Positions 16,454 through 64,000 of a DNA stretch of 64,000 nucleotides are shown here, in pieces. The notes below the pieces were generated by a model. It did not search any database. It was given only the letters and a program-made list of their open reading frames with translations, and was not told where the DNA came from. Origin of the DNA: Porphyridium purpureum (Eukaryota; Rhodophyta; Bangiophyceae; Porphyridiales; Porphyridiaceae); NCBI GenBank assembly GCA_008690995.1, contig VRMN01000012.1, positions 355,515-419,514 on the forward strand, written 5' to 3'. Every line of letters starts with the position of its first letter. The stretch's first letter is position 1. The translations under genes and the position numbers were made by a program.

Positions 16454-18457
16454 ATGTTCTCATTCAAAGGAGACGATTGCTCTCACATTCGCGCTGGTGG
16501 CTTGACGTTACGATCGCAGCGGGTGTCGGAGAGGAGACGTTCACTGGCTTGCTCTGCTTTTGTGCAAGAGTACAAGCTCGCACTCGGTGTCGCAGAAGAG
16601 GTCTCGGCCATGGCGGAAACCAGAACGCGGGGGCCGATACCTTCATCAGCTTTGGCTTCTGGAGACGGGACACAAATACATGAGGCATCTTGTCCCGCGC
16701 AGGTATTAAGTGGACACGCGGGGTCCTTAAATTCATTGGCATGGTCTTCCGATGGCAACCTTGCGTCAGGCGGTGATGATAAGGTTGTCAAACTCTGGCA
16801 TCCTCCGTCAGGAACGTGCTTGCAGACGTTTCATGGGCACACGCACTTTGTAACAAGCGTGCGTTTCGCCCCGGACGGAAAATGGCTTGTGTCCGGCAGT
16901 TTAGACAGGACCGTGAAGCTCTGGGACGCCAAGAATGGCGCGTGCCTTCATGACTTCAAGCACAATCGGCACAAGATCTACGCGGTCGACATCTCACCTC
17001 TCGGCCAAACTTTCGCTTCTGCCGGGGACGGCTTGAAGATTCAGTTGTGGAACGCGTGGAAGTACGAGTGTGAACACTCTCTAGGATCAGCAAGAGACTC
17101 ACATACTCGCAGCGTAAAGTCGGTTCATTTCTCGCCGGATGGACAGCGCCTAGTCAGCGGGAGCTCAGACCGCACAATCAAGATATGGGATGTTTTCTCG
17201 GGGGATTGTATTCACACGCTGGATTCGCTGGGTACCGAAGTACAAGCCGTCCGCTTCTCACCCAGCAATGAGTTGGTGGCATCGGTTGCACAAACCGGTG
17301 GGATCAGGCTATGGGATGTCCGTGCCGGCACATATGTGCGCACAATTCAAGCACCCGGGGTTATCTATTCATTGTCGTTTTCGCCCGACGCACAGGAGCT
17401 AGCGTCCGCTGGTAAGGGTGGAAACATCAGCATCTGGAGCGTAGAGACAGGCAAACGCGTAGACATGTTGAAGGGACATGAGTGGATAACACGCTCAGTT
17501 GCTTTTGCGCCGGACGGCCGGAGCCTAGCATCCTGCGGCACTGATCTTAAAGTGAGCGTTTGGATCACTCGCGAACTTCGGTCACGAAATTGCGAGTTGC
17601 CGTCGAAACCGCGGCCAGAACCGCGGCCAAAACCGCGGCCAGAACCGCGGCCAGAACCGCAGCCAGAACCGCGGCCAGAACCGCGGCCAGAACCGCGGCC
17701 AGAACCGCGGCCAGAACCACAGCCAGAACTGCAGCCAGAACCGCAGCCAGAACCGCAGCCAGAACCGCAGCCAGAACCGCGGCCAGAACCGCTAGTAGAA
17801 CCGCGGCCAGAACCGCGGCCAGAACCGCGGCCAGAACTGCAGCCAGAACTTCAGCCGGAACTGCAGCCAGAACTGCAACCGGAACTGCAGCCAGAACTGC
17901 AACCGGAATCCCAGCCGGAAAGACAGCCGAAATCCCAGTCGGGATCCCAGCCGCAAATGCGGTCGGAGCAAGAGCCAGCACTGGTTTCAGAACTGGTGCC
18001 TCTCCCGGACCAAGTGCAACAAGGGGAGCAAAAGCCTACACAGGCGCCTGCGTTGCTCAATGTGGTCCGACCGGAATCGGAAGACTTGCCAGGGCTTGAC
18101 CCAGCAGATATGGACGCAGATCTCCCATCGTACCACAGCTCCAATGAAGATTCTAGCCCAAATGCCGCGGGACCAGTGAAGCGCGCACGTCTTGACAATA
18201 CGTGGCAGTCCGTGTCTGACGCAAGCGCGCTCCTGGTGTGGAAAGACGCCTACATAGAAATAAGTCAAACTCTCGAAGTACCTGAGCTAAGCGTGGAGTC
18301 AGCAAGCGATGTGGCTTTTGAACTACTCAACGGGTCCATATCCTCGCGAGCCGTAGAATTGGCGATGCGTGCCAGAGATCGAAACAGAAGTGGGTCTATC
18401 AGTTTGACTCAATTCATCCTCGCTATGAAGGCTCTTGCGAACTCACGCATCTTGTAG
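16454..18457 (+). CDS. WD40 propeller protein with Pro-Glu repeat and C-terminal EH/EF-hand-like segment
   Basis: 667 residues from ATG at 16454; ATG at 16610 (MAETRTRG) is an alternative start. Seven WD40 units run from about residue 80 to 375 (for example [51 protein letters not shown]), enough for one closed propeller. From about residue 378 a 12-bp DNA repeat encodes (EPRP/EPQP)n for about 100 residues. An acidic linker follows, then a final ~75 residues with [20 protein letters not shown], one EF-loop of an EH-type domain. Two larger relatives with WD40 followed by full EH pairs lie at 56270 and 60288, so this looks like a diverged family member. Function unknown; EH domains usually bind NPF-bearing trafficking proteins. 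Confidence 0.86.
17608..17910 (+). repeat. 12-bp coding minisatellite (CCAGAACCGCGG)
   Basis: About 25 units with variants GCGG/GCAG/CTGCAG in the third and fourth codons, encoding repeated Pro-Glu-Pro-Arg or Pro-Glu-Pro-Gln. Units stay in frame. The 3' third carries more substitutions than the 5' part. Confidence 0.93.
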
Positions 18458-23287: not shown

Positions 23288-23288
<1 letters not shown>

Positions 23289-27437: not shown

Positions 27438-27506
<69 letters not shown>

Positions 27507-28532: not shown

Positions 28533-28564
<32 letters not shown>

Positions 28565-28761
28565 GGGAAGAAGCGGTAGGTGGGGGGAGGGGGGGGCTTT
28601 TTGGACTTGTGGAAAAGCGAATATAAGGCTGCGTCGAGGTTGGGCGGCTCATCTTCGCTCTTGTGTGCTTGTCGCCATAGTTAAGGGCGCAGCAGGGACG
28701 AAAGGGTGACCCACCGATTTCGGTTGCCCGCTCTTCGTCTCTATCTGATTCTTTCGCCGCG

Positions 28762-30634: not shown

Positions 30635-31082
30635 TCACTGAAGTACCAGCGTGCATTCGCCCAGGCGAGCCTCAATGGTTTTCATCACTTTTTCAAGTCC
30701 CACACCGGTGGTGGACCACAACTCGTCCTCCTTGAACACGGCCGACACTGCCACAACGACGTCTCCCTCCTTCACACCAGCCTTCTCTCCATTTGATCCC
30801 GCAGCGACCTCGCGCACAAACACCATCCCGTCGTCCCGCTCTTCAAGCAGCAGTCCAATCGGCTTCTCCACCGTCACCTTTCGCTCGCCTTTCTGGACTG
30901 GGCGGTTCTCACTCTCCTCCATGCCGTCCTGGTGGATGTTGAAAATCTCTTTCGCGTCCTCTGCTGCCATGTACAACGTGGCGGGCGAGCGCCTCGCTTG
31001 CGGCGTCATGCACGCCGGCTCCATTGCGTTCGCCAGCTTGTGCGGCACCACCTGCGCCGCAAGCTCCGACAAAGGCAACCAT
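30635..31082 (-). pseudogene. PDZ-domain gene copy 2, targeting start out of frame
   Basis: Identical by reading to the copy at 25359-25806, including the 23-nt difference that separates MVAFVGACGAG from the PDZ frame. Confidence 0.55.
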
Positions 31083-32713: not shown

Positions 32714-32770
<57 letters not shown>

Positions 32771-33796
32771 GCGCAAGGCACGTAGGCTGATGGCTTATTT
32801 CTTAGTACAGCTTTGCGGAGCCGATATCGGAGAAAAAAAGGAGAGTGTGCTTGGGCGTGCAGATCCAAGCGACCATCTTGTTGGGCACAGTAAAAGTGTG
32901 CTCATCTGCCCTTGGAGAAGGGCTAATCATCAGCCAGTGCTTGACTGGCGCTGTCCGCTTTGTCTACTACCTACGGCGTTGCCGAAGACACAAGATGAGG
33001 ACGTGCGCGTGGTAGCGGCTGGAACTGGACTGCGAAGCGTTGGGTTGTGTGAGTCGAATGTCGTTGTGGGCGGTGGGAATGATTCTCTGATGAATGACCC
33101 AGAAGTGGCTTCGCGATGCACAGTGCATGGTAGACGTGCCGCCATGATCACGTGATCATGTTCAAGTTTAATTCACATCGTTCTCCGCTTTTGGTATCGT
33201 TTGCTGCATGCGAGCCAATCAAATTGCGATTGCGCGCGCTTCGAAAAAGGAATAATGAGGTCTTTAAACGAAGCTGCTGGAAATCGTATCGCATGGCTTT
33301 GCAGCCTCACTTCGAGGTGTGTAGAAAACAAGCACGGCGGAGAACAATATTCATCGGCTCAGAGGAAAATTATTCCCACACGCCGTTGTGTGCGCCGCGT
33401 TGTGTCACGCAAGTACAGAGCGGCTTTTCTTGTGTGTTGCGCTTCGTCGGCCTCGACCATGACCACATGCGAGATCCAAACGGACTCCTCCCTTCCGACT
33501 GACTCCGAAGCAAAACGCCCACGCAAAGCATGAAAAAACAACGACGAAAATATCTAGAAACCATCGCTGGCAACATCTGATTTGGACTGTGTCCGGAGCG
33601 TTTTTGAATTGTACTTTTCGATGCGACGAAAATCGGTGTGTTTCGCGCCGTCAACGACGCGCGCCGGAAGATGAACACAGAGTGTCCATGAAGTTGTGAG
33701 ATGGGCTGCCGTGGCTATTTAAAGACATGATGATGGTGTGGCTGCAGGGAGACGTGTGTGTGCGTGTGTGTGCGTGTGTGTGCGTGTGTGTGCGTG

Positions 33797-33828
<32 letters not shown>

Positions 33829-34025
33829 GGGAAGAAGCGGTAGGTGGGGGGAGGGGGGGGCTTTTTGGACTTGTGGAAAAGCGAATATAAGGCTGCGTCG
33901 AGGTTGGGCGGCTCATCTTCGCTCTTGTGTGCTTGTCGCCATAGTTAAGGGCGCAGCAGGGACGAAAGGGTGACCCACCGATTTCGGTTGCCCGCTCTTC
34001 GTCTCTATCTGATTCTTTCGCCGCG

Positions 34026-35216
34026 ATGCTGACACGCAGTCGCACTCGCGTGCGTGCTCGACTTGCCTGGGAACTGCTTGTTCTTGCTATTCTCCTGGTT
34101 CTCGTCGACTCGCGTCGAGGCCTTCTGCGAGCTTCGGTAGAGGCGGTCGGCCTTCGTTGCGATGCATGCTCGACCGACTTTGATTGTGTTGGCGTTCTGG
34201 GATGCTTCGAAGGCACGTGCGAGCTGGCGTCGGACCCCATTGGCATTTGCGAGACCGGATGCTGTCAAGCGTGCGACTGCTCGGTGAACACGGTGTGTGT
34301 GGGCGACTCCGGGGCGTCGTGCTCGGAGGATTGCAATTGCAGCGGTGACTTGGTGTGTGTGGACGGCCAATGCGGATCGGGAGGTCCGGGTCCACCGCCT
34401 TCAACCGGGCCGCGCTGCAGTACCTGCTCGACCGATGCAAATTGCGCTGGGGTACTGGGATGCTTCGAAGGCACGTGCGAGCTGGCGTCGGACCCCATTG
34501 GCATTTGCCAGACCGAATGCTGTGAAGCGTGCGACTGCTCGGTGAACACGGCGTGCGTGGGCGCCTCCGGGGCGTCATGCTCGGAGGATTGCAATTGCAG
34601 CGGTGACTTGGTGTGTGTGGACGGCCAATGCGGATCGGGAGGTCCGGGTACACCGGGTCCACCGCCTCCTCCGCCTCCTCCGCCTCCACCGCCGACACTG
34701 CCAACACCGCCGATAATGCCGCCACCTCCACCGACGTCACCGCCACCGGAGCCGGTGTGTATCGACGCCGAGTGGATCGAGGCGCGTGGGTTGGAGAAGG
34801 TGCATGCCTCTGATGGCGTGGGCGAGTTGCTGTGCATTGTAGGTCTGGACGACATTCCGTGCGGCACGCCCGACCACGTGCTTGAAGTTGCCGAAATTGC
34901 GGGTGCTGCTCGCATGCGCGCGTCGAGGTCGGTGCTTCGCACGTACGCGGACGTGTGTGCGGCGCGCGCGTGCACGTCCAAGGTGGGCCGCTTCAATGGC
35001 GTCTTGCACTCGGATGCGCACTTGATGCCGACTCAGGAGGGCCACACGCTGACGACAGTGGCGCATCGAGGTACGATTTGGAGTGGCGTTGAGAACCGTG
35101 TCGTGGTGGCCGCGCAGCGCATGCAGTCTGCGCGCATCAACCGAGCCCTGGCGTACTTGCAGCAGAAGAATAGCGTGCAGCGCCTGGATGATACGAAGCG
35201 GGGTGTGACCGTTTGA
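34026..35216 (+). CDS. Secreted Cys-rich, Pro-rich protein, copy 3
   Basis: Same 396-residue translation as the copy at 23486. The only upstream change is a microsatellite 12 bp shorter, about 1.26 kb before the ATG. Confidence 0.8.
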   Translation: MLTRSRTRVRARLAWELLVLAILLVLVDSRRGLLRASVEAVGLRCDACSTDFDCVGVLGCFEGTCELASDPIGICETGCCQACDCSVNTVCVGDSGASCSEDCNCSGDLVCVDGQCGSGGPGPPPSTGPRCSTCSTDANCAGVLGCFEGTCELASDPIGICQTECCEACDCSVNTACVGASGASCSEDCNCSGDLVCVDGQCGSGGPGTPGPPPPPPPPPPPPTLPTPPIMPPPPPTSPPPEPVCIDAEWIEARGLEKVHASDGVGELLCIVGLDDIPCGTPDHVLEVAEIAGAARMRASRSVLRTYADVCAARACTSKVGRFNGVLHSDAHLMPTQEGHTLTTVAHRGTIWSGVENRVVVAAQRMQSARINRALAYLQQKNSVQRLDDTKRGVTV

Positions 35217-35898
35217 GGAGGTTGCGGGCACGGAGACTGTGCGAGAAACGTGCTCGCATGACGGCAGGAGTCGTGGCGCCCGGCCGATCGGCGCGCGTGG
35301 AGTCGGTCCAGTTTGTGCCAATCTGTGGCGGAGCATCCAGATGAACGACGAAATGCACGGTTTGGGATGTCCTGGGGCAATGAAAACATGACCCCCGGCT
35401 TTCGGAGACGGCGCGCCCGCTGCCTGTGAAAGGGCGACGGATTTTCTCCCCCGGGGTTTTTGCCGACGCTCTCTATTCTTCTTTCTCTCGAGAGTTTATT
35501 CTTTTTCTTTAAAGTCTAAGTGAATGTCTGAAGCAACTGCTGGGGCGCCATGTTAGTTCACTGCTGCGGAAACCCTTTCCGTCGTCATTGGCACAATGCG
35601 CAAAAGGTCTGGCCTGCCAATTGGCCATGTGTGAGAGCAAAGCAGAGGGATCTTCCAGTTTGTCCCAGTATTTTCCCGACAATTTGGCAAGTGTTTTATT
35701 CTGTTCCCCCATCGAGGGTATCTCCCCTGCAGTAAGTGAGCCCGTCCAGGTCAAATGAAGTACCTACCGCTGCGGCGCGAGACGCACCCTGGGAAGCACG
35801 GAAGAGGAAGCCAGATTAAGTATCCTTGTCAAAAGCTGGCTGCGATGGTAACACATGACGAGCTGGAGCAGAGCCTACTTTCTTTCGCAACTATTATC

Positions 35899-36346
35899 TC
35901 ACTGAAGTACCAGCGTGCATTCGCCCAGGCGAGCCTCAATGGTTTTCATCACTTTTTCAAGTCCCACACCGGTGGTGGACCACAACTCGTCCTCCTTGAA
36001 CACGGCCGACACTGCCACAACGACGTCTCCCTCCTTCACACCAGCCTTCTCTCCATTTGATCCCGCAGCGACCTCGCGCACAAACACCATCCCGTCGTCC
36101 CGCTCTTCAAGCAGCAGTCCAATCGGCTTCTCCACCGTCACCTTTCGCTCGCCTTTCTGGACTGGGCGGTTCTCACTCTCCTCCATGCCGTCCTGGTGGA
36201 TGTTGAAAATCTCTTTCGCGTCCTCTGCTGCCATGTACAACGTGGCGGGCGAGCGCCTCGCTTGCGGCGTCATGCACGCCGGCTCCATTGCGTTCGCCAG
36301 CTTGTGCGGCACCACCTGCGCCGCAAGCTCCGACAAAGGCAACCAT
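35899..36346 (-). pseudogene. PDZ-domain gene copy 3, targeting start out of frame
   Basis: Identical by reading to the copy at 25359-25806. All three share the same lesion, so it predates the amplification. Confidence 0.55.
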
Positions 36347-36613
36347 CGTTTGCTGACTCTCGTCTCACTCGGCGTGCGACCCGTGCCGTTCAGCGTGCGC
36401 CGGAGCAATCAGCGTCCCGTCGCGCACGCTCGAAAGCGTTCTGCTCGATCATGGCTGCGGCATGCAGCCGGCGCGACGGAACGGCGTGCCCGTCTGCGCA
36501 CCTGCATCTGTGGCGCAAGCCGGCCTTTGCTTCAACCGGAATCGCTCGAGATGCCGCTGGTGCATGCGAGCGTGCGAGCGTGCGGCGGCACGGCTGTGAC
36601 GCGAATGGCGTGT

Positions 36614-37977
36614 GCGAGTGGCAGATGTGGCGGCTCGTTCGTGTCTGAGTGCCGCGCGTGGCAATGTGGCGCGCCGCATGTACCTGCGCATGAGTTCACG
36701 CGCTGCGGAGAGACGCGCCGGCTGGAGAATGGCGGAATGTGCTTGGCGTTGTCGGGCGGGTTTCACCGAAGAGCGTGGACCGAGAGGCAATGGACGTGGT
36801 GTGAGCGCCGTCTCGCGCCGTGCGTTGAGCACGCCCAGAGCTGTGGCTCTTGATCGGTCATGATGTAAGGGCGCGTGGTGGGTTTACTCGGATGAGGAGG
36901 GATGATGCTGATCGCAAGGCGGCTGCCGCGTACGATGAGGGAGAACATTACGCGTCCAGATGGACAGGGTGCAAGACACTTTCGCGAGGTGTGAAGTATG
37001 CCAACGGAGGCAAAGCGATGCTTGTTGCGTCAGCGGCGGCTGGGCGACAGGACGTCGTCTTTGACGTGTCGCCACATGGTGCGCGTGCACCTGCTGCGGA
37101 GCAGGAAGCGTTGCATTCTGCCCCGGCGAGGCGTTGTGCGACTTGCGCTGACAGTATCACTGTCGGTAGTCGCGGGGGCCCGTCAGGTCCCGTTGGTCTC
37201 GAGGTGAGCCAGCTGGAGATCAGCAACGCTCAGCACCGTTCAGCAGGCGCGCGGCGCCAATCGGCTCTGTCGTGGCCGAATATATTTCGACTGATTCATG
37301 AAAAGCAGCGAGGGCAGGCCATGAGTGTGGTCAAGTGAAACAGGCTCTGCGTGCACATGGCCGTTGTGCACGCGACGATGTGAGAAAAAATCTTGGTACG
37401 GAGCCTCTTTCCGTCGAAGAAGTTGGTTTTCGGTGGCTGGGGCGCGACGCCGACATCCAGCTTCTGGAAGGAACACGACGGCAGGAGCGGCACCGAGCGT
37501 GCGATGGCGCTGGACGGCTGTCAAAGACGCGAAAGCCAAGCGAGGCTCGCTGACTATAACTCTATCGGAAACTCAGAAGCGTTTTGCGACGCGTGGAAGT
37601 GGACGAAGACTAAACGCAACGACTCTCACCACGATGCGTGCAGTCCATTGGACTCATGTGGCTGGATTCGCGGCGCAAGCGCTGGCTTGTATCTGCAGCG
37701 GAGAACGGGGCGACTGAAAGACGGCATGGTGAGCTACCCAAGCAAGCCTGGTGAGAATCCAGAGTGAGATGGAACATGTCCGTAGAGTAGGGTGCCAGCT
37801 TGAATTGCGGGTTGGCAGATGATTGAGCGCCAATGCTTCATTCAACAATGTTGGTACGCAAACAGGTTGCGCGAGTGCATCGTGCAATGAGCCATGCAAC
37901 CTGCACGTCTGTGCCGATCGTCTTGCCTGGGGGGCTGCGTGACAGGTGTTTCAACGCATCCCATGCCATGGTGTTCA

Positions 37978-38034
<57 letters not shown>

Positions 38035-39060
38035 GCGCAAGGCACGTAGGCTGATGGCTTATTTCTTAGTACAGCTTTGCGGAGCCGATATCGGAGAAAA
38101 AAAGGAGAGTGTGCTTGGGCGTGCAGATCCAAGCGACCATCTTGTTGGGCACAGTAAAAGTGTGCTCATCTGCCCTTGGAGAAGGGCTAATCATCAGCCA
38201 GTGCTTGACTGGCGCTGTCCGCTTTGTCTACTACCTACGGCGTTGCCGAAGACACAAGATGAGGACGTGCGCGTGGTAGCGGCTGGAACTGGACTGCGAA
38301 GCGTTGGGTTGTGTGAGTCGAATGTCGTTGTGGGCGGTGGGAATGATTCTCTGATGAATGACCCAGAAGTGGCTTCGCGATGCACAGTGCATGGTAGACG
38401 TGCCGCCATGATCACGTGATCATGTTCAAGTTTAATTCACATCGTTCTCCGCTTTTGGTATCGTTTGCTGCATGCGAGCCAATCAAATTGCGATTGCGCG
38501 CGCTTCGAAAAAGGAATAATGAGGTCTTTAAACGAAGCTGCTGGAAATCGTATCGCATGGCTTTGCAGCCTCACTTCGAGGTGTGTAGAAAACAAGCACG
38601 GCGGAGAACAATATTCATCGGCTCAGAGGAAAATTATTCCCACACGCCGTTGTGTGCGCCGCGTTGTGTCACGCAAGTACAGAGCGGCTTTTCTTGTGTG
38701 TTGCGCTTCGTCGGCCTCGACCATGACCACATGCGAGATCCAAACGGACTCCTCCCTTCCGACTGACTCCGAAGCAAAACGCCCACGCAAAGCATGAAAA
38801 AACAACGACGAAAATATCTAGAAACCATCGCTGGCAACATCTGATTTGGACTGTGTCCGGAGCGTTTTTGAATTGTACTTTTCGATGCGACGAAAATCGG
38901 TGTGTTTCGCGCCGTCAACGACGCGCGCCGGAAGATGAACACAGAGTGTCCATGAAGTTGTGAGATGGGCTGCCGTGGCTATTTAAAGACATGATGATGG
39001 TGTGGCTGCAGGGAGACGTGTGTGTGCGTGTGTGTGCGTGTGTGTGCGTGTGTGTGCGTG

Positions 39061-39092
<32 letters not shown>

Positions 39093-41540
39093 GGGAAGAA
39101 GCGGTAGGTGGGGGGAGGGGGGGGCTTTTTGGACTTGTGGAAAAGCGAATATAAGGCTGCGTCGAGGTTGGGCGGCTCATCTTCGCTCTTGTGTGCTTGT
39201 CGCCATAGTTAAGGGCGCAGCAGGGACGAAAGGGTGACCCACCGATTTCGGTTGCCCGCTCTTCGTCTCTATCTGATTCTTTCGCCGCGATGCTGACACG
39301 CAGTCGCACTCGCGTGCGTGCTCGACTTGCCTGGGAACTGCTTGTTCTTGCTATTCTCCTGGTTCTCGTCGACTCGCGTCGAGGCCTTCTGCGAGCTTCG
39401 GTAGAGGCGGTCGGCCTTCGTTGCGATGCATGCTCGACCGACTTTGATTGTGTTGGCGTTCTGGGATGCTTCGAAGGCACGTGCGAGCTGGCGTCGGACC
39501 CCATTGGCATTTGCGAGACCGGATGCTGTCAAGCGTGCGACTGCTCGGTGAACACGGTGTGTGTGGGCGACTCCGGGGCGTCGTGCTCGGAGGATTGCAA
39601 TTGCAGCGGTGACTTGGTGTGTGTGGACGGCCAATGCGGATCGGGAGGTCCGGGTCCACCGCCTTCAACCGGGCCGCGCTGCAGTACCTGCTCGACCGAT
39701 GCAAATTGCGCTGGGGTACTGGGATGCTTCGAAGGCACGTGCGAGCTGGCGTCGGACCCCATTGGCATTTGCCAGACCGAATGCTGTGAAGCGTGCGACT
39801 GCTCGGTGAACACGGCGTGCGTGGGCGCCTCCGGGGCGTCATGCTCGGAGGATTGCAATTGCAGCGGTGACTTGGTGTGTGTGGACGGCCAATGCGGATC
39901 GGGAGGTCCGGGTACACCGGGTCCACCGCCTCCTCCGCCTCCTCCGCCTCCACCGCCGACACTGCCAACACCGCCGATAATGCCGCCACCTCCACCGACG
40001 TCACCGCCACCGGAGCCGGTGTGTATCGACGCCGAGTGGATCGAGGCGCGTGGGTTGGAGAAGGTGCATGCCTCTGATGGCGTGGGCGAGTTGCTGTGCA
40101 TTGTAGGTCTGGACGACATTCCGTGCGGCACGCCCGACCACGTGCTTGAAGTTGCCGAAATTGCGGGTGCTGCTCGCATGCGCGCGTCGAGGTCGGTGCT
40201 TCGCACGTACGCGGACGTGTGTGCGGCGCGCGCGTGCACGTCCAAGGTGGGCCGCTTCAATGGCGTCTTGCACTCGGATGCGCACTTGATGCCGACTCAG
40301 GAGGGCCACACGCTGACGACAGTGGCGCATCGAGGTACGATTTGGAGTGGCGTTGAGAACCGTGTCGTGGTGGCCGCGCAGCGCATGCAGTCTGCGCGCA
40401 TCAACCGAGCCCTGGCGTACTTGCAGCAGAAGAATAGCGTGCAGCGCCTGGATGATACGAAGCGGGGTGTGACCGTTTGAGGAGGTTGCGGGCACGGAGA
40501 CTGTGCGAGAAACGTGCTCGCATGACGGCAGGAGTCGTGGCGCCCGGCCGATCGGCGCGCGTGGAGTCGGTCCAGTTTGTGCCAATCTGTGGCGGAGCAT
40601 CCAGATGAACGACGAAATGCACGGTTTGGGATGTCCTGGGGCAATGAAAACATGACCCCCGGCTTTCGGAGACGGCGCGCCCGCTGCCTGTGAAAGGGCG
40701 ACGGATTTTCTCCCCCGGGGTTTTTGCCGACGCTCTCTATTCTTCTTTCTCTCGAGAGTTTATTCTTTTTCTTTAAAGTCTAAGTGAATGTCTGAAGCAA
40801 CTGCTGGGGCGCCATGTTAGTTCACTGCTGCGGAAACCCTTTCCGTCGTCATTGGCACAATGCGCAAAAGGTCTGGCCTGCCAATTGGCCATGTGTGAGA
40901 GCAAAGCAGAGGGATCTTCCAGTTTGTCCCAGTATTTTCCCGACAATTTGGCAAGTGTTTTATTCTGTTCCCCCATCGAGGGTATCTCCCCTGCAGTAAG
41001 TGAGCCCGTCCAGGTCAAATGAAGTACCTACCGCTGCGGCGCGAGACGCACCCTGGGAAGCACGGAAGAGGAAGCCAGATTAAGTATCCTTGTCAAAAGC
41101 TGGCTGCGATGGTAACACATGACGAGCTGGAGCAGAGCCTACTTTCTTTCGCAACTATTATCTCACTGAAGTACCAGCGTGCATTCGCCCAGGCGAGCCT
41201 CAATGGTTTTCATCACTTTTTCAAGTCCCACACCGGTGGTGGACCACAACTCGTCCTCCTTGAACACGGCCGACACTGCCACAACGACGTCTCCCTCCTT
41301 CACACCAGCCTTCTCTCCATTTGATCCCGCAGCGACCTCGCGCACAAACACCATCCCGTCGTCCCGCTCTTCAAGCAGCAGTCCAATCGGCTTCTCCACC
41401 GTCACCTTTCGCTCGCCTTTCTGGACTGGGCGGTTCTCACTCTCCTCCATGCCGTCCTGGTGGATGTTGAAAATCTCTTTCGCGTCCTCTGCTGCCATGT
41501 ACAACGTGGCGGGCGAGCGCCTCGCTTGCGGCGTCATGCA
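36614..41540 (+). repeat. Tandem array unit 4, right-truncated (4927 bp)
   Basis: Same short microsatellite allele as unit 3. Identity stops after 41540 (GTCATGCA, then G instead of C), inside the PDZ gene. The sequence beyond is a diverged relative of the last 337 bp of the other units. Confidence 0.95.
39290..40480 (+). CDS. Secreted Cys-rich, Pro-rich protein, copy 4
   Basis: Same 396-residue translation as the copy at 23486. This copy is the one paired with the intact PDZ gene at 41163-41633. Confidence 0.8.
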   Translation: MLTRSRTRVRARLAWELLVLAILLVLVDSRRGLLRASVEAVGLRCDACSTDFDCVGVLGCFEGTCELASDPIGICETGCCQACDCSVNTVCVGDSGASCSEDCNCSGDLVCVDGQCGSGGPGPPPSTGPRCSTCSTDANCAGVLGCFEGTCELASDPIGICQTECCEACDCSVNTACVGASGASCSEDCNCSGDLVCVDGQCGSGGPGTPGPPPPPPPPPPPPTLPTPPIMPPPPPTSPPPEPVCIDAEWIEARGLEKVHASDGVGELLCIVGLDDIPCGTPDHVLEVAEIAGAARMRASRSVLRTYADVCAARACTSKVGRFNGVLHSDAHLMPTQEGHTLTTVAHRGTIWSGVENRVVVAAQRMQSARINRALAYLQQKNSVQRLDDTKRGVTV

Positions 41541-41633
41541 GACTGGCTCCATTGCGTTCGCCAGCTTGTGCGACACCAGTGGCGCCACGCGGCTGTTCGA
41601 ACCCGCACCGCAAGCTCCGACAAATGCAACCAT
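41163..41633 (-). CDS. PDZ-domain protein with red-algal-type plastid transit peptide
   Basis: 156 residues from ATG at 41633. The start MVAFVGACGAGSNSRVAP and the following Ala/Ser/Arg-rich stretch to about residue 45 fit a red-algal transit peptide, with Phe at position 4 and no acidic residue until Glu29. A single PDZ domain spans about 77-155: GLLLEE loop, DGMVFVREVAAGSNGEKAGVKEGDVVVAVSAV, ending TLVLQ. PDZ domains bind C-terminal peptides; in plastids similar small PDZ proteins are peripheral to thylakoids, so a scaffold role there is inferred. The 3' two thirds (up to 41540) are identical to the array copies. The first third differs and continues into unique flanking DNA. The gene is thus a chimera and the only copy with start and domain in one frame. 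Confidence 0.8.
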   Translation of the reverse strand: MVAFVGACGAGSNSRVAPLVSHKLANAMEPVCMTPQARRSPATLYMAAEDAKEIFNIHQDGMEESENRPVQKGERKVTVEKPIGLLLEERDDGMVFVREVAAGSNGEKAGVKEGDVVVAVSAVFKEDELWSTTGVGLEKVMKTIEARLGECTLVLQ

Positions 41634-56269: not shown

Positions 56270-58243
56270 CTAAAGCAGGGACCACGTCTGCGCTTCCAGC
56301 CTTCCAGTCACGTGCCAAGCTCCGGGAAAGAAGCCGCGCTTCGCCCTCATGTTTGTTCGCTTACTAGGTTGCTTCCGGAACCACAACCACTCCTCCAAGT
56401 TCGACACAGCGTGAGATTCTAAGAGCAAAGCACAAGCGCGCTCAGCACGCTCCGTGTCACCGTCAAGGGCGCCCAACAAATACTGCTCAAACCCTTCGTA
56501 TGACTTTCGCGCCGCTACCCACTTGTCAACTTTCTTCTTGTCCGGGAATGACAGCTGCACAAACTCTTGGAACTCCTTCATGTCGTTCAGTGCCTCGCCG
56601 TTCACCTGGCGCTCCCTCACATTCCGGACCGATGCGGCGTCAACCTGCAGGACCCCTTCCAGGACTCGAGCCAGCTGCTCACAAGTCAGATCATCAAGGG
56701 GAGTTTCCGCAAGCATCTTCTCCACGTCAGTGTCCGACTCGTCGCCTGGCGATAGAATCTCATCGGCACGAGGGTCTACAGTACTTGTATCGGGACGTGC
56801 GGGCTGCCCAAAAGGACCCACCGGCTCTGGCACGGGCGTTGGGACCTCGACCTTGATGTTCGCGATCAGTTCCTTCTCGCCACGTGCCGCCTCGTCCAAG
56901 TCCAGCTTCATTCCCTTCTGGGCCATCGCCACCAGCCGCAACGCAGTCTTGAACCGCCCCGTATCGAGCGACGAAAACATCCCTTGGCTGGTTGCGAAGC
57001 TCCAGATCTCATTCAGCATGCGATTCGGTAGTCCAGACTTGGACAAAAACGCAACCGTTTCCTGCACGTCCACCTCACCGCTTCCGTCCGCGTCGGCCAC
57101 CTTCCAGTATACCTCGTGCTGTGCTGTCTCCGACAGCGTGCGCGCGCCAAGGGCAAACGGATTCGCCCCGGGTACGTCTATTTTGGCACGCAGCGAGAGC
57201 GGACCTTGTTGCGCACGCGCCAGGCTGCCCTGCTCGCCGTTCTGCTCCAGCGCAATGAAGCGAAGCGCGAGCACAAAGTCATCATAATTTAGCGTAAGCT
57301 TGCCGCGAGCTGTTGCAATGTCATCCCACATGCGATACAGCACCGAGGTCGAAAGCCGCGTCTTTGAGAAGAACGCCAGCGCCTCCTGAGCTTCCAGAGC
57401 GCCGCTCCTATCCGAGTCGGCGACCGCCCAGTAATCCTTGCAATACTGTGCCTCGTCGGCTGCACCAGGCACACTTTCACGGCCGCACTGTCGATCACTT
57501 GTTTCCCACACCTTGACCGTCTTGTCATCGCGGCTGGACGCCATGAACCGGCCATCGAGCGGGAAACGCTCTGTGGTCACCTTTTCTGAATGATCCTGCA
57601 GGGTGCGGACGCACGAGCCGGTTTGCACATCCCACACCGTGATCGTTTTGTCCCAGCTGCCGGACGCAATGAATCGGCCATCGGGCGAAAAGCGCACCGC
57701 GTACACACCATGTTGGTGCCCAGTCATGGTGCGCACGCACGCGCCGGTCTGCACATCCCATACCTTGACCGTCTTGTCATCGCTGCCGGACGCGATGAGC
57801 TTGCCATCGGGCGAGAAGTCCACCGCCCACACCTTATCCAACTGTTCCGTCAAAGTGCGGACGCACGAGCCAGCGTGAGCGTCCCACACATTGACCGTTT
57901 GGTCCCAGCTGCTGGACGCAATGAATTGGCCATCGGGCGAAAAGCGCACCGCGTACACACCATGTTGGTGCCCAGTCATGGTGCGCACGCACGCGCCGGT
58001 CTGCACATCCCATACCTTGACCGTCTTGTCATCGCTGCCGGACGCGATGAGCTTGCCATCGGGCGAGAAGTCCACCGCCCACACCTTATCCGAGTGTTCC
58101 GTCAAAGTGCGGACACACGAGCCAGCGTGGGCGTCCCACACATTGACTGTTTTGTCCCAGCTGCCGGACGCAATGAATTGGCCATCGGGCGAAAAGCGCA
58201 CCGCATACACACCACATGAGTGCCCGTCGCGCAGATTGCGCAC
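56270..58243 (-). CDS. WD40-EH-EH-SAM-like protein, paralogue 1, 5' end damaged
   Basis: 657 codons, no ATG at the start of the open frame. Six WD40 blades (about 1-255) alternate two types, [25 protein letters not shown] and [25 protein letters not shown], so the real DNA period is 252 bp with very high identity. Two EH domains follow (about 264-335 and 374-440; [44 protein letters not shown]), each with an EF-type loop. Next is an acidic linker, then a SAM-like region (about 514-575; [23 protein letters not shown]...VNGEALNDM) and a C-terminal helical part. EH domains bind NPF motifs in endocytic proteins. The ancestral start lies in decayed sequence at 58244-58602. It may be a pseudogene, or the 5' end may be misassembled. 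Confidence 0.75.
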
Positions 58244-58602
58244 GTACGCGCGCCGGTCTGCACATCAATACCTTGACCGTCTTGTCATCGTATGCGGACG
58301 CGATGCGTGCATCGGGCGAAGTCCACCGCCACACCTTATCCGGAATTTCCATCAAAGTGCGGATACACAGGCCAGATGACGTCCCACACATTGACCGTTT
58401 GGTCAGCTGCTGGACGCAATGGGTGTACATCGGGCGAAAGCGCACGTACACACCATACTGCCCAGTCATGGTGCGCACACTTTACTGGAACTGCCGCGTC
58501 TATGACCGTCTTGTCGCTGCTGCCGGACTGATAGAACCGTCGGGCGAAGTCTACCAAATCCACACCTTATCTGCGTACCCAGTCAGGTCGCTTAATTACC
58601 AT
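58244..58602 (-). pseudogene. Decayed 5' part of WD40 paralogue 1
   Basis: Recognisable WD40 DNA (three blades, for example GATAAGGTGTGG, GACAAGACGGTC, CCAAACGGTCAATGTGTGGG) with many 1-4 nt deletions relative to the intact units and stops in every frame. An ATG at 58602, followed by ACGCAGATAAGGTGTGG at about 58574, lines up with the start of the paralogue at 62315. Confidence 0.7.
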
Positions 58603-60287
58603 CGCCTCTGCTTCAACCCACCGACCGTCCACACCGCACTATTCTCACTTCCAGCACACGGCCTGCTCTCCCTCCTGCCCGTGCACGCGCGCCCCGCCTT
58701 TCTGCCGGAATCGCGAAATCGAACGCGTTTCACGATTTTCCAGCGCTGCGTCGCACAGCGCGCGAAGGCAGAAACGACCAAAGCGGCCGTTGCGCGACGC
58801 CGTGCTTTTCGGTGCGCTCAATTTGGCTTCATGCGGTTGCATGGCAGCGCAGGGAGCGCTAAGATCGCTGGCTGCATCTGGCGGGCGTGCGTGAATGGAT
58901 AGACGGATACATGAGGCGCAGGTACGCGAGAAGCACGCTGGACAGCTGCTCGGGACGCAGTCACGGGAAGACATCTACCCGAAAGGTTGGACACAATGTG
59001 ATAAAGGAGACCCATGTAGGCACACAGGGGCTCACACGGGAGCCACTTAGGAGGCATAGAGAAAAGCATGATCCTCCCGGACATGGTCTCAGGCCGCACG
59101 TTAAGAGCATTACCTGCGCGTTTGCTTCTTTTTTCTTTTTTTTTTTTTCACTTCCTGGACTGCCAATGCACCATGCAGCTGCTGATTCGGAAAACTGAAG
59201 TAAAACGGAGCGGCGCAAAACAAAGCCGTGCTGGCGTTCGGAGGTCGGTGGTGAAAGGGGCAAGACAGATCACGTCTGCACGGTTTAGATGGATGGAGCG
59301 GCAGCAGTGAGCGAGCAAGAGACCTGCGGTAGCGGTTTCCAGAACTGCGCCCGTAGCGTGGATGATGGCATCTAAGCACAGAAGGGCACGGCAGAATGCC
59401 GAAGAATCAAGTCGCTGATGGGCGCATCGTAGCCGCAGCGTTCGCGCATGTTTGCTTGCGCACAAGATCTGGACCATGCACCACGCTCGGTGGTTGTCCG
59501 TCCTGTAAGGATCTGTCCTGAACTCCATGCCACTTTTTTGACAGAGGGAATTTGTCCACAACTTGTCGCGAAGTTTCCTACTCGGCTGGATACATCTGAA
59601 CAGGCAGCTTGCTGCTCCACGGCGCGCCCTTGCGATGAGCCCTCTGTCCCTGTAGGTGATCTGGCAGTCGCCGCGCTGGCGCAAAAGCACGAGCGCTTTT
59701 GTGTTTGTACTCCAGGATGACCGTGGCACACAGCTTCCAGTGCGCAGCCCGTGCCCGTGCCAATGCCGACGCCGGATAAGTGCATGCGTGCTCGACCGTA
59801 TCAAGCGTGGCTGGGAATTTATCCCACAGCGCGCCGCTCAGGTATGGCATCCATGCATTCCATTGCAATCACACGCAACCGCTCGCAGCCGCTCTTAGCC
59901 GCTCGCAACCGCTCTTAGCCGCTCTTAGCCGCTCGAAATCCGTCGCGAGCGCATGCACCCGAGCCACAGGCGGCCCACGCAGTCGTCACGGGAAAGTGCA
60001 CTCACTTTATTGTGAACATCACACCAACTCGCACCCGCCGCTAGCGCACACGGCGATCATGTGAGCGTCCTCTTTCAATAGGTTTCCGTACGTTGCACAT
60101 GTATCGTGCATGCTGCTTTCTGCACCAGACAATCAAGCCCGCCGCGGGTCCACAAATACACAGACGCTCACATGATCCAGTCAGCCCGTGCCACCTCGCG
60201 CGCGTACCCGACACACGCTGACAAGCGACCACTGCGGCAACGGCTTATTGCTCATTCTCACAAACACTCACGCGCACCAGCATTGGT
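58603..60287. other. Spacer between the WD40 paralogues
   Basis: Contains T11 at 59138, a CGCTCTTAGC/CGCTCGCAAC decamer-like repeat at 59874-59938 and no supported gene. Confidence 0.5.
59874..59938 (+). repeat. 10-bp degenerate tandem repeat
   Basis: About six units alternating CGCTCGCAAC, CGCTCGCAGC and CGCTCTTAGC in intergenic DNA. Confidence 0.85.
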
Positions 60288-62315
60288 CTACTTCCACTCC
60301 GCCGCGTCAGGTCCGCCCGGCCATGTGCCAAGCTCGGGGAAAAGCCGCACAATCTCTCTCATACTTCTTCGCTTGCTAGGTTGCTTCCGGAACCACAACC
60401 ACTTCTCCAAGTTCGACACCGCGTGATATTCTAAAAGTAGCGCGCAAGCACGCTCGGCACGCTCCGCGTCACCGCCAAGGATGCCCAACAAATACTCCTC
60501 AAACCCTTCGCACGACTTTCGCCCCGCCACCCACTTTTCAATTTTCTTCTTGTCCGGGAATGACAGCTGCACAAACTCTTGAAACTCTTTCATGTCGTGC
60601 AGTGCTTCCCCGGTAACCTTGCGCTCCCAAACATCCCGAACAGATGCGGCGTCAACCCGCAGGAGCTCCTCAAGTACTCGAGCCAGCTGCTCACAAGTCA
60701 GGTCATCCAGCGCAGTTTCCGCAAGTACACTATTCATGTCGTCGCCTGGGAACGGACCCACGGGCTCTGGCAGAGGCGTTGTAGCCTCGACTTCGATGTT
60801 TGCGATCAGTTCCATATCACCATTCGCCGCCTCGTCCAAGTCCAGCTTCATTCCCTTCTGGGCCATCGCCACCAGCCGCAACGCAGTCTTGAACCGCCCC
60901 GTATCGAGCGACGAAAACGTCCCTTGGCTAGTTGCAATTCCCCAGATCTCATTCAGTACGCGGTTCCGCAGTCCAGACTTGGACAGAAAAACAACCGCTT
61001 TCTGCACGTCCACTTCATCGCTTCCGTTTGTGCAGACCAGCTCACAGTACTCCTCGTGCCGCGTCGTCTCCAACGGTGTACGCGCGCCAATGGGTAACGG
61101 GTTCGACCCCGGTATGTCTAGCTTGGCCCGCAGCGAGTGCGAGCCTTGTTGCGCTCGCGCCAGGCTCGCCTTCTCGCCGTCCTGCACCAGCGCAACGAAG
61201 CGCAGCGCGAGCACAAAGTCGTTGTAGTTTAGTGCGCGCTTGCCGCGCCCTGTAGCAATCTCCTTCCACATCCGATCCAGCATCGAGGTCGACAGCTGCG
61301 CCTTCGAAAAGAACACCAGCGCCTTCTGAGCGTCCAGAGTTCCGCTCTTATCCGAATCGGCAATCCCCCACAAATTCTGGCAGTACTTTTCCTCGTCAGC
61401 TGCACTAGACATGCTTTCGAGGCCGCACTGTAGGTCGCTTGTGTCCCACATCTTGACCGTCTTGTCATCGCAGCTGGACGCCATGAACCGGCCATCGGGC
61501 GAGAAACGCACTGCGGTCACCTTTTCTGAATGTTCCTGCAGATTGCGGACGCACGAGCCGGTGTCTGCGTCCCAAACCATGACCGTTTGGTCCCAGCTGC
61601 CGGACGCGATGAACCGGCCATCGGGCGAAAAGCGCACAGCGTACACACCATGTTGGTGCCCAGTCATGGTGCGCACGCACGCGCCGGTCTGCACATCCCA
61701 TACTTTGATCAAGCAGTCGTCGCTGGCAGACGCGATGAACCAGCCATCGGGCGAGAAGTCCACCGCCCACACCTTATCTAAGTGTTCCGTCAAAGTGCGG
61801 ACACACGAGCCGGTGTCTGTGTCCCACACCATGACCGTTTGGTCCCAGCTGCCGGACACAATGTACCGGCCATCGGGCGAAAAGCGAACCGCGTACACAC
61901 CATGTTGGTGCCCAGTCATGGTGCCAACGCACGCGCAGGTCTGCAAATCCCATATCTTAATCGAGCGGTCATCGCTGCCAGACGTAAGGAGCTTGCCATC
62001 TGGCGAAAAGTCCAGCGTCCACACAGGATCTGAGTGCCCCGTTAAAGTGCTGATACGCGCGCCGGTGTGTGCGTCCCACACCATGACCGTTTGGTCCCAG
62101 CTGCCAGACGCGATGAAGCGGCCATCGGGCGAGAAGCGCACCGCGTACACACCATGTGCGTGCCCCGCCATGGTGCGCACGCACACGCCGGAACGCGCGT
62201 CCCACATCTTGATCGTCCTGTCATCGCTGCCGGACGCGATGAGCCTACCAACGGAGGAGAAGTCCACCGTCCACACCTTATCTGCGTGCTCCGTCAGATT
62301 CAACACAGCCGCCAT
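60288..62315 (-). CDS. WD40-EH-EH-SAM-like protein, paralogue 2 (intact)
   Basis: 675 residues from ATG (MAAVLNLTEHADKVW). Seven WD40 blades (about 1-298) make one full propeller; alternate blades share nearly the same sequence ([26 protein letters not shown] three times). EH1 at about 305-375 (DSDKSGTLDAQKALVFFSKAQL... MWKEIATG), EH2 at about 421-483 ([46 protein letters not shown], split here), where the first acidic residues of the loop are changed to CTNGSDE, so calcium binding there is doubtful. SAM-like region at about 538-597 ([20 protein letters not shown]...VTGEALHDM) and a C-terminal helical part. No signal peptide; cytosolic. An endocytic or recognition adaptor is inferred; I know of no described protein with this order. 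Confidence 0.88.
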   Translation of the reverse strand: MAAVLNLTEHADKVWTVDFSSVGRLIASGSDDRTIKMWDARSGVCVRTMAGHAHGVYAVRFSPDGRFIASGSWDQTVMVWDAHTGARISTLTGHSDPVWTLDFSPDGKLLTSGSDDRSIKIWDLQTCACVGTMTGHQHGVYAVRFSPDGRYIVSGSWDQTVMVWDTDTGSCVRTLTEHLDKVWAVDFSPDGWFIASASDDCLIKVWDVQTGACVRTMTGHQHGVYAVRFSPDGRFIASGSWDQTVMVWDADTGSCVRNLQEHSEKVTAVRFSPDGRFMASSCDDKTVKMWDTSDLQCGLESMSSAADEEKYCQNLWGIADSDKSGTLDAQKALVFFSKAQLSTSMLDRMWKEIATGRGKRALNYNDFVLALRFVALVQDGEKASLARAQQGSHSLRAKLDIPGSNPLPIGARTPLETTRHEEYCELVCTNGSDEVDVQKAVVFLSKSGLRNRVLNEIWGIATSQGTFSSLDTGRFKTALRLVAMAQKGMKLDLDEAANGDMELIANIEVEATTPLPEPVGPFPGDDMNSVLAETALDDLTCEQLARVLEELLRVDAASVRDVWERKVTGEALHDMKEFQEFVQLSFPDKKKIEKWVAGRKSCEGFEEYLLGILGGDAERAERACALLLEYHAVSNLEKWLWFRKQPSKRRSMREIVRLFPELGTWPGGPDAAEWK

Positions 62316-62549
62316 TGCAGCTCGTGGCCCCTCCTTCCACCGACTGTCCACACCGCACGCTTCTCACTACCTGCACACGCGCGCCACACACAACCTCACT
62401 CCGACTTTCGACCCCGTCTTCACGAACATAGGCGTCCAGCCGATCTGAGCTGTTTCTGTCGAACGTGATAGTGGCGCGAAGCAGTTCCAGCGCAATACTT
62501 TGTCAATCCTGCATTTGGAGCGGACAGCACAGCACAATCCGGAAGGAAC

Positions 62550-62668: not shown

Positions 62669-62922
62669 GCGAGTACCTAAAGGCGGAGGGACTAGACCTT
62701 CGCGAGTCGGGACAGGTAGAGTAAATGTTTTGTGTGTAAAAGAATATACATTCTGTGACTTCTGTTGTTCGGGAGAGAACAGATATCACCTCACGCTTCC
62801 CACCTCACTGGCACGCTTGTCGGGAGACTGGCAGACCAGGGGTGAGCGGCGGATCATTTACTCTCTGTTGGAAAACAAAAACCGGTTACCTTTGACATTT
62901 CGAAATTGTCAACTTATTCGTG

Positions 62923-64000
62923 ATGGCGTCTGGAACCAGATCACAGCGTGAGACACAGCAGCGTGCTGGCGCCGATGCCATCGGATCGGTCGCAAATGCT
63001 TGGGAAAGCATGAAGTCAAAGAACGAAGACATGCAAAACCTGCTGGACATGTGTAACGAGTCGACCAACTCGGAGATCGAGATGTTGATGGTTGAAAGGT
63101 CGATTACTCTGCAGCAGCTGAGAAACTTGAGCATTGTGTGCCCCATTCAGTGGCAGCAATACTGCAGGCTTCGCGGTCTTCCAAATTTCGAAGCGGGGAC
63201 TAGAATTGAAGATTCGTTCGAACGCTATTCCCCACAGGCTGAATGCAAGTCAGAGCCAGAAGCAGATCCATACCAAGGCACCGTAGCAGTTGCAGCACAA
63301 CCGAGTGACCATAATAAGCTTCAACAGTTTGTTCGGTTGTTTCCAGTCGAAGCACAATTCGACGGGTCTGACACAGGAGTCCCTTTCACTGTGTGGAGTC
63401 GAAAAGTATTCAATGGTATGAAAATGATGAACATCGACGAAAATACAACCCTGAGAGCGTTGCCGCTCATTGTGAAGGGGGCAGCTGAAACGTGTATTGC
63501 TGCAAACCGCAAAGAGAGATTGCATGCGGCTCTGGAACACCTGAGGAAAGAATTCGACACAGAAGAAGTTCGTTTGATGAGAATGTTGGAGCTCCGCACG
63601 AAGAACTTCGACTCTTATCTTAAGAGACATATTGATGTTGGCTCGGCATTTGATAGCTTGGTTCGCGACGTCACCGATGTAGCGACTCGCGTAGGTCCTC
63701 CCCATGACACTCCAGACTGTATCGCCAGCTTTGTGATACAAACCATGCTTAATACTAGCCACGGCGAACTCATCGCGGCAGCCGTCACAAAGAACTCGGA
63801 CGCCGGCTCTCTGGCACGGGTCCGATTTGTGCTCGTAACGCAGGAGAAAAGAAAAGAGCGAACTGTTCTATTCCAAGACGAACACACCGCAAAGGTGTCA
63901 CAGTCGCCACATGGGTTGAAGAAGCAGAAAAGCTTTGGGAAGAAATTGCATTGTACCCATTGTGGAAAAACAGGGCACGATAAAGGAAAGTGCTGGGCTT
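62923..64000 (+). mobile_element. LTR retrotransposon gag region, continues past the window
   Basis: ATG at 62923 opens a frame with no stop to base 64000 (359 codons). The N-terminal part is helical; residues ~130-320 resemble the Gag capsid-type region of Ty1/copia- or gypsy-class elements (FTVWSRKVFNGM, LRALPLIVKGAAETCIAA, ALEHLRKEF). A basic stretch (KKQKSFGKKL) leads to a CCHC zinc knuckle CTHCGKTGHDKGKC at residues 344-357 (C-x2-C-x4-H-x4-C). Pol is expected to the right. Codon use is richer in A+T than the neighbouring genes, as expected for a mobile element. Class cannot be settled without Pol. Confidence 0.85.

What the first reader, a model, noticed from the sequence alone, without database searches (positions are those of the whole stretch)
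56270..62315. WD40-EH-EH-SAM-like architecture with young, homogenised propeller blades
Two tandem paralogues join a WD40 propeller to two EH domains and a SAM-like region, an order I do not know from described proteins. The blades alternate two types in a 252-bp DNA period with near identity inside a gene, while the EH parts have diverged more. High internal repeat identity in WD40 arrays is known from fungal NLR-type recognition genes, where repeats are reshuffled under selection. A recognition or variable adaptor system is a serious possibility.
Basis: partly seen in the sequence, partly recalled or inferred. Interest (0 to 1): 0.75.

Follow-up and report, generated by a model that had tools for sequence, protein, structure and literature searches.

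The report
Red-alga propeller–EH proteins that swap blades
A single-celled red alga carries a family of proteins that join a seven-bladed binding wheel to two trafficking-type EH domains, and the wheels differ in blade number and swap blades between genes while the rest stays uniform, as one would expect of a variable recognition or adaptor system whose target is still unknown.

Summary
The window ends at the end of a contig of the unicellular red alga Porphyridium purpureum. Gene 2 (60288-62315, minus) is intact: seven 42-aa WD40 blades, two EH domains, then a conserved tail of no known family. SAM is not supported. Gene 1 (56270 to about 58600) has the same order but is frameshifted at both ends, so it is damaged or badly assembled. 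The 252-bp alternation of two blade types is real, but was seen only in this pair.

The genome holds at least 20 loci of this WD40-EH-EH-tail family, 14 of them open. In the C22/C31 cluster the EH parts are 90-98% alike between paralogues while the propellers are only 76-83% alike and have lost blade-by-blade correspondence. Two versions of the cluster (haplotypes or a large duplication) show blades exchanged between neighbouring genes and one exact seven-blade (882 bp) difference. Variation is greatest at the loop positions selected in fungal HNWD receptors. Omega above 1 is only hinted, in one 21-blade array; it is not shown family-wide.

Most likely this is a lineage-specific family with a variable propeller and a constant EH adaptor. 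It behaves like fungal variable-WD40 receptors but lacks NACHT, so it is not a member. Ligand and function are unknown.

The parts
60288..62315 (-). Gene 2: intact 675-aa WD40(7)-EH-EH-tail protein, single open frame from the conserved ATG at 62315
   Evidence: 100% identical copy at C33:215796-217856
61407..62288 (-). Gene 2 propeller: seven 42-aa WD40 blades, order B-A-B-A-B-A-last
   Evidence: AlphaFold2 model with 28 strands over residues 3-290, 10-residue mean pLDDT 73-90 for residues 11-230 and 61-68 for 231-290
61149..61397 (-). Gene 2 EH domain 1 (first EF loop DSDKSGTLDAQK; conserved Trp)
   Evidence: Pfam EH; genome-wide EH search
60834..61067 (-). Gene 2 EH domain 2 (first EF loop degenerate in this copy)
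   Evidence: phmmer to EPS15 EH 1qjt_A E=1.3e-6
60291..60725 (-).
56270..58264 (-). Gene 1: in-frame part with six blades, EH-EH and tail; frame lost near about 56350 and upstream of 58222
57467..58222 (-). Gene 1 in-frame blades (A-B-A-B-A-last)
58223..58605 (-). Gene 1 upstream blade-like DNA with dense small gaps (about three more blades), decayed or unpolished
16454..18457 (+). More distant relative in the same window: WD40 propeller, P/E/R/Q repeat linker, C-terminus similar to those of C3_207460 and C11_1588110

Best explanation
A lineage-specific family of adaptor proteins with a variable front and a constant back. Front: a WD40 propeller, seven blades in most open copies, whose residues vary most in the d-a loop and the b-c turn, the binding face of such propellers. 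Back: two EH domains (modules that usually bind NPF peptides in endocytic and trafficking proteins; recalled) plus a conserved tail. Shown: blades are swapped between neighbouring genes, one propeller-sized block differs between two versions of a locus, blade positions no longer correspond between paralogues, and the EH-tail part stays uniform under purifying selection. Inferred: the propellers bind a changing set of targets (parasite or virus proteins, variable cargo, or self/non-self markers) and the EH domains deliver the bound target, or the signal, to one common NPF-bearing trafficking partner.
For: At least 20 loci, 14 open. In 18 of 18 non-allelic pairs among seven C22/C31 genes EH-EH is 0.904-0.980 identical (DNA) and the propeller only 0.762-0.825. 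The last blade of three C22 genes is identical in all three but 0.754-0.794 like their C31 counterparts, while blades 1-5 match at 0.987 and 1.000 in the two of these pairs that could be compared. Exact 882-bp (7-blade) difference C31_14761 / C22_147814. Same-position blades (0.735-0.812) are no more alike than different-position ones (0.733-0.790) in 15 pairs of six genes. The longest shared exact stretch lies in a different blade number in 86 of 103 pairs. Entropy ranks positions 4, 22, 6, 3, 24 highest of 42 over 13 arrays; 4, 6, 22, 24 correspond to HNWD codons 7, 9, 25, 27. Omega is 0.14-0.47 in EH-EH and 0.09-0.52 in the tail in 42 non-allelic pairs. EH passes the Pfam cut-off.
Against: No ligand, expression, localisation or other-strain data. 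ML omega at the four loop codons is 0.67 family-wide (2dlnL 4.21 against omega=1), so positive selection is not shown; pairwise omega at seven loop codons exceeds 1 in only 19 of 42 pairs. Relatives with lower internal identity also vary much there, which structural freedom alone could give. C22 and C31 may be a segmental duplication rather than haplotypes. One allelic-like pair shows no exchange. NPF binding is inferred from the domain family only. Homogenised EH parts with shuffled repeats could arise from recombination without any recognition role.
Confidence: 0.5

Rival explanations
1. Ordinary endocytic or trafficking adaptors. The family was amplified in this alga, and blade turnover is a neutral by-product of tandem similar repeats and gene conversion; the propellers do housekeeping scaffolding.
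For: EH domains are found and are endocytic modules (recalled). Framework, EH and tail codons are under purifying selection. Unequal exchange is expected in 126-bp repeats. Loop positions also vary much in five relatives with lower internal identity. The window pair's surfaces are largely uniform A/B repeats.
Against: EH parts are kept uniform while propellers differ sharply in 18 of 18 cluster pairs. In the C1 array 20 blades have no synonymous and 11 nonsynonymous changes in 35 framework codons, yet 19.5 nonsynonymous and 2.5 synonymous at seven loop codons. Fourteen open copies are many for a single housekeeping adaptor (inference).
Confidence: 0.3
2. A true intracellular immune or allorecognition repertoire: each propeller recognises a pathogen or non-self factor and the EH-tail module triggers a defence or death response, as in fungal HNWD NLRs.
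For: Same repeat length, same variable positions, repeat-number difference, inter-gene exchange and broken copies as in HNWD (for HNWD; 10, 39, 55, 84 here). No NB-ARC hit and only one marginal NACHT match over the cut-off in the genome. Related arrays carry another C-terminus with a mildly hydrophobic SFIP(Y/F)AGAG segment.
Against: Pfam found only EH and EF-hand-type matches worth naming in the C-terminal parts, no known death or TIR domain. Function untested.
Confidence: 0.15
3. Mostly decaying copies and assembly noise: the assembly is hybrid Nanopore/Illumina, repeats are hard to polish, and the differences between C22 and C31 or the frameshifts are artefacts.
For: Gene 1 has clustered small gaps. 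Five of 20 loci have stops in the C-terminal part. 2553 bp are 100% identical between C20 and C33 with a 78% flank.
Against: 14 open loci with EH and tail omega well below 1. C22 and C31 differ in a structured way (last blade shared by three genes, exact 882 bp), which base-calling errors do not make.
Confidence: 0.05

Closest known systems
Fungal HNWD/NWD NLR genes with high-internal-conservation WD40 (het-e, het-d, het-r of Podospora)
   Same: 42-aa blades, differences in blade number, exchange between genes, variability at d-a loop and b-c turn codons (7, 9, 25, 27 = 4, 6, 22, 24 here), broken copies (PMC1805685, PMC2873952, PMC12222747, PMC4986451: passages seen)
   Different: No NACHT or HET domain found; WD40 is N-terminal; EH-EH-tail instead; mean within-gene identity 0.57-0.72 aa except C1 (0.89) and C11 (0.78); positive selection not shown
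Highly- or moderately-repetitive WD40 proteins of bacteria, fungi and protists (Hu et al. 2017, PMC5587647, passages seen)
   Same: Mean blade identity (last blade left out; their measure may differ) above the 0.4 cut-off for the 13 arrays measured and above the 0.7 cut-off for four (C1 0.89, C11 0.78, C31_39663 0.72, window gene 1 0.71)
   Different: That study is a catalogue by internal identity; 'red alga' and 'Rhodophyta' do not occur in its main text
EH-domain endocytic adaptors (EPS15, intersectin; plant AtEH/Pan1 recalled)
   Same: EH domains by Pfam; phmmer to EPS15 1qjt E 1.3e-6, a calcium-binding EF-hand family protein 6yeu E 4.8e-4, intersectin-1 2khn E 0.062
   Different: WD40 propeller in front; lineage-specific multi-copy family; no other Pfam module found in the C-terminal parts
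Brown-algal LRR-ROCO candidate immune receptors (PMC11378527, passages seen)
   Same: An alga diversifying a repeat sensor by repeat shuffling next to a constant module
   Different: LRR exons and a GTPase module there; WD40 blades in one open frame and EH here

Membership tests
Fungal HNWD/NWD-type NLR (STAND) | NACHT or NB-ARC nucleotide-binding domain | tested here: not met
   C-terminal parts give EH, EF-hand and a few weak other Pfam matches, no NACHT; only 9 aa precede blade 1; genome: no NB-ARC at E<=0.01, 8 NACHT-profile matches of which one over the cut-off, none at a family locus
[quoted passage not shown] criterion seen in PMC4986451) | tested here: not met
   Mean pairwise within-gene aa identity 0.58 and 0.71 in the window genes; above 0.85 only in C1 (0.89) of 13 arrays
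Fungal HNWD/NWD-type NLR (STAND) | Repeat-number polymorphism between alleles or strains | tested here: inconclusive
   9 against 2 scored blades, exact 882-bp difference, between C31 and C22 versions; met if these are haplotypes, which was not proven
Fungal HNWD/NWD-type NLR (STAND) | Concerted evolution with blade exchange between genes | tested here: met
   Identical last blade in three C22 genes, unlike their C31 counterparts; register lost
Fungal HNWD/NWD-type NLR (STAND) | Positive selection at four loop codons | tested here: inconclusive
   Family-wide omega 0.67 (four codons) and 0.94 (seven codons) against 0.27 (other 35); C1 alone 2.1 to the program's bound of 50, 2dlnL 2.6-4.8, including for its framework codons; C1 P(S<=2 of 33)=0.0097, P(S<=3)=0.034
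EH-domain proteins | EH domain over the curated cut-off, two copies | tested here: met
EH-domain proteins | Binding of NPF motifs | not testable with these tools
   A Trp in the second half is invariant in the 8 EH sequences that I chose for alignment; its role in the pocket is recalled; binding untested
SAM-domain proteins | SAM profile match in the tail | tested here: not met
   No SAM match
SAM-domain proteins | SAM fold of the tail | tested here: inconclusive
   All-helical model with mean pLDDT 48, too weak to judge
WD40 propeller | Seven four-stranded blades | tested here: met
   28 strands over residues 3-290; seven WD40 stretches

The most novel reading that the evidence does not exclude
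A unicellular red alga with no detectable NB-ARC keeps a germline repertoire of variable recognition proteins of a new build. Exchangeable WD40 propellers are the variable part, and an endocytic-type EH-EH adaptor with a new tail, instead of a nucleotide-switch NLR core, is the constant part. Sister arrays carry a different, partly hydrophobic, effector-like C-terminus. It would be a non-STAND counterpart of fungal variable WD40 receptors.
Probability: 0.3. Interest if true: 0.85.

Novelty: new variant of a known kind. Interest (0 to 1): 0.6.

Why it matters
Variable repeat receptors are known in animals, plants and fungi (recalled; fungi seen) and proposed in brown algae. In the listings that I saw none was reported for red algae (6 of 6 papers listed; 15 of 45; 0 found; 8 of 47), which is no proof of absence. 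If the propellers prove to bind changing targets, this family would show that the variable-front, constant-back design can be built on a trafficking adaptor without a nucleotide switch, in a small genome where it can be tested. Even if neutral, it is a clean case of blade exchange between genes seen in two versions of one cluster.

Tried and rejected
SAM assignment: profile searches gave no SAM match. The tail model (mean pLDDT 48) was too weak for a fold search. In the full-length model the propeller is good but all after residue 292 except one residue is below pLDDT 50, with only two sequences in the alignment. No fold search was run.

Telomere link: several family loci lie near contig ends, but no TTAGGG array was found in the 78 loci then held, and among the 200-base ends of 12 contig ends only C31's right end showed a short tandem repeat (about 12 bp), not a telomere type that I know; not claimed.

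EH-like nature of the C-terminus of C3, C11 and window 16454: hhalign gave probability 0.4%, so no EH claim is made; EF-hand matches there are below Pfam's cut-offs.

Relatives elsewhere: none confirmed in viral contigs or prokaryote genomes. Eukaryote genomes other than this one were not searchable, so presence in other red algae is untested.

Positive selection: counting and codon ML on a fixed tree. Blade exchange violates the tree assumption, so the omegas are rough. In C1 the framework codons too have omega at the bound, so the excess is not confined to the loops.

Chance alternation: in each window gene one tenth of the possible blade orders reach the observed even-odd contrast, so the order of five or six blades is not by itself significant; the A/B sequence split is what carries the observation.

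Literature: WD40 with EH and SAM (10 of 14 listed), Porphyridium with vegetative incompatibility (none), TPLATE/TSET (none) gave no matching paper in the listings.

Rows left out: 41 and 73 drop the last blade of each array and leave out the C22 genes 120114, 136886, 140797 and 147814; one search uses 10 of the 14 open genes; one search uses 15 genes and drops 2 allelic-like pairs of 105.
Full report
Where it is. The window is G000:C20:355515-419514, the right end of a 419,514-base contig in a 22.16 Mb genome of 46 contigs. A phycobilisome linker of this genome matches PDB 6kgx LRC2 over all 490 residues without a visible mismatch (that 6kgx is Porphyridium purpureum is recalled). Size and largest contig (C43, 5,717,864 bases) fit the 22.1 Mbp hybrid Nanopore/Illumina assembly of P. 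purpureum CCMP1328 (52 contigs, largest 5.7 Mbp; PMC6811547, passages seen). I take the species as P. purpureum.

The two genes. Gene 2 (60288-62315, minus) reads from a conserved ATG almost directly into seven WD40 blades of 42 aa, then two EH domains and a tail. Gene 1 has the same order. Its first part (58223 to about 58600) is blade-like but shows 33 gap openings over 412 aligned bases against gene 2, 27 of them bases missing from gene 1, while its in-frame blades show 6 over 749. Its last ~30 residues are out of frame and the other frame soon meets a stop. In a hybrid long-read assembly the first stretch may be unpolished sequence rather than decay; I cannot tell. TRF reports 252-bp arrays in both genes. 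Blade types A and B differ (61-70% DNA in gene 2) while same-type blades are 74-98% alike. Between the two genes six aligned blades are 86.1% (DNA) and 77.8% (aa) identical, EH-EH 82.6% and 70.6%, tail 86.7% and 82.9%.

Domains. EH is firm (PF12763, 52.2 and 51.0 bits, cut-off 22; EPS15 EH domain 1qjt, E 1.3e-6). The tail is strongly conserved (mean column identity 82% in 9 sequences) but gives no SAM match; the weak matches go to other families, best PDZ_3 at E 0.0068. AlphaFold2 with the two window proteins gives 28 strands, a seven-blade propeller (10-residue mean pLDDT 73-90 over residues 11-230, 61-68 over 231-290), and nothing reliable beyond. In blade 1 of the model positions 4 and 6 precede strand a and positions 22 and 24 lie between strands b and c, the places described for Podospora codons 7, 9, 25, 27 (PMC1805685, passages seen).

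Family. Searching the genome with the C-terminal 371 aa gives 20 loci, a lower bound: C20 x4, C33, C22 x5, C31 x4, C40, C45 x2, C17, C1, C11. Five have stops in the C-terminal part (C45 x2, C17, C1, C11) and window gene 1 is frameshifted, leaving 14 open. Of these, 11 have seven scored blades and the others 12, 9 and 2 (the C33 copy is counted as gene 2, with which it is 100% identical). Window gene 2 and the C33 copy are identical over 2553 bp while the flank beyond is 77.7% alike, which suggests recent gene conversion. Of 40 EH stretches found in the genome at E<=0.01, 32 lie at these loci. No NB-ARC was found; the NACHT profile gave 8 weak matches, one over the cut-off, none at a family locus.

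Sister arrays. C1_2367146 has 21 blades and a broken EH part. C3_207460 (22 scored blades) and C11_1588110 carry another C-terminus with a mildly hydrophobic SFIP(Y/F)AGAG segment (best 19-residue Kyte-Doolittle means 1.5 and 1.6) and weak EF-hand matches at the end. Pfam shows nothing over its cut-offs for either; the PDB search was run for the C3 copy only and gave nothing meaningful (E 0.81). The window gene at 16454-18457 ends in a similar module. A link of this module to EH was not supported.

Constant back, variable front. For ten of the 14 open genes all 45 pairs were compared. Seven of them are C22/C31 genes: 21 pairs, 3 allelic-like. In the other 18 of 18, EH-EH is 0.904-0.980 identical (DNA) and the seven blades 0.762-0.825; dS is 0.04-0.26 in EH and 0.32-0.64 in the blades. 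Blades at the same position are no more alike (0.735-0.812) than blades at different positions (0.733-0.790) in 15 pairs of six genes. Over 103 non-allelic pairs of 15 genes the longest exact shared stretch lies in the same blade number in 17 and in another in 86, roughly what loss of register would give.

Two versions of one cluster. C31 (91.7 kb) matches C22 inverted: collinear pieces at 93-98.5% in the cluster, 97% at C22:112.8 kb, 96% at C22:85.9 kb. They are haplotypes or a large duplication. C22 holds five family loci, C31 four. Comparing versions: blades 1-5 are 0.987-1.000 identical in three pairs. In one pair (C31_35562 / C22_140797) the last blade is identical too. In the other two, the last blade of C22_120114 and of C22_136886 is only 0.794 and 0.754 like the C31 version, while the two are identical to each other and to C22_147814. 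That is blade exchange between neighbouring genes on one version. C31_14761 has nine scored blades and C22_147814 two; the alignments put the difference at 882 bp, seven blades, one propeller's worth. Which of the two is the older state is not known.

Selection. Mean entropy over 13 arrays (last blade dropped) ranks positions 4, 22, 6, 3, 24 first of 42. In 42 of 42 non-allelic pairs omega at seven loop codons (0.68-1.75, above 1 in 19) exceeds omega at the other 35 (0.22-0.46). Pooled changes over 13 arrays: 298 nonsynonymous to 88 synonymous at loops, 507 to 328 elsewhere (odds ratio 2.2). In C1, 20 blades show 30.5 nonsynonymous and 2.5 synonymous changes (P of 2 or fewer synonymous of 33 = 0.0097, of 3 or fewer 0.034), 19.5 of the nonsynonymous ones at the seven loop codons. 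Against: codon ML gives family-wide omega 0.67 at the four codons (2dlnL 4.21 against 1), 0.94 at seven and 0.27 elsewhere. For C1 omega exceeds 1 in every partition, framework included, with 2dlnL only 2.6-4.8. Five relatives with lower internal identity also vary much at these loops (entropy ratios 1.4-2.9; the 13 arrays 1.7-4.0 except C1 with 14). So: weak constraint at the binding face is shown; diversifying selection is suggested in C1 only.

How it probably works. Shown: propeller, EH-EH, constant tail, purifying selection on the back, blade exchange and a propeller-sized length difference. From established knowledge of the families (recalled): EH domains bind NPF peptides of endocytic proteins, and WD40 top faces bind proteins. 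Inferred: variable propellers select targets and the EH-tail module links them to one trafficking partner. Whether this serves defence, cargo choice or self/non-self recognition is open.

Comparison. In repeat behaviour it works like fungal HNWD WD40 sensors, but NACHT is absent and 12 of 13 arrays fall short of 85% mean internal identity, so it is not filed there. It is filed as a new variant of repetitive WD40 proteins, joined to EH domains. I found no paper describing WD40-EH-EH in red algae in the listings of searches, in a library of openly licensed papers; four of these listings show only part of, or none of, the wider literature.

Noticed in passing
window 22162-41578: Four tandem copies of a 5.26-5.28 kb unit, 100% identical in three and 99.9% over 3601 bases in the fourth (partial), each with a 396-aa cysteine-rich ORF holding an internal 258-bp duplication; the one copy scanned had no Pfam match.
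   Followed up: partly
window 62920-63999: Gag-like ORF with a CCHC zinc-knuckle motif (by eye) running off the contig end; probably an LTR element beside gene 2; no Pfam match at E<=0.01.
   Followed up: no
L042 (C3:207460-211752) and L041 (C11:1588110-1590305): Repetitive WD40 arrays fused to an unknown C-terminal region with a mildly hydrophobic SFIP(Y/F)AGAG stretch; only sub-cut-off Pfam matches (EF-hand, SlyX and others); PDB searched for the C3 copy alone, nothing meaningful.
   Followed up: partly
C33:215691-218243 and window 59904-62456: 2553 bp holding gene 2 identical on two contigs while the downstream flank is 77.7% alike: recent conversion, duplication or assembly effect.
   Followed up: partly
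L063 (C33:191189-192445): WD40 relative (six scored blades and one more by eye) preceded by a hydrophobic, possibly membrane-spanning segment, without EH in the same frame.
   Followed up: no
L069 (right end of C1) and L072 (left end of C22): The two contigs end in the same short sequence in inverted orientation, as read from the printed ends: a shared terminal repeat or an assembly break.
   Followed up: no
window 10197-13907: Minus-strand protein with hemerythrin, CHY finger, RING and zinc-ribbon domains (BRUTUS-like by recall).
   Followed up: no
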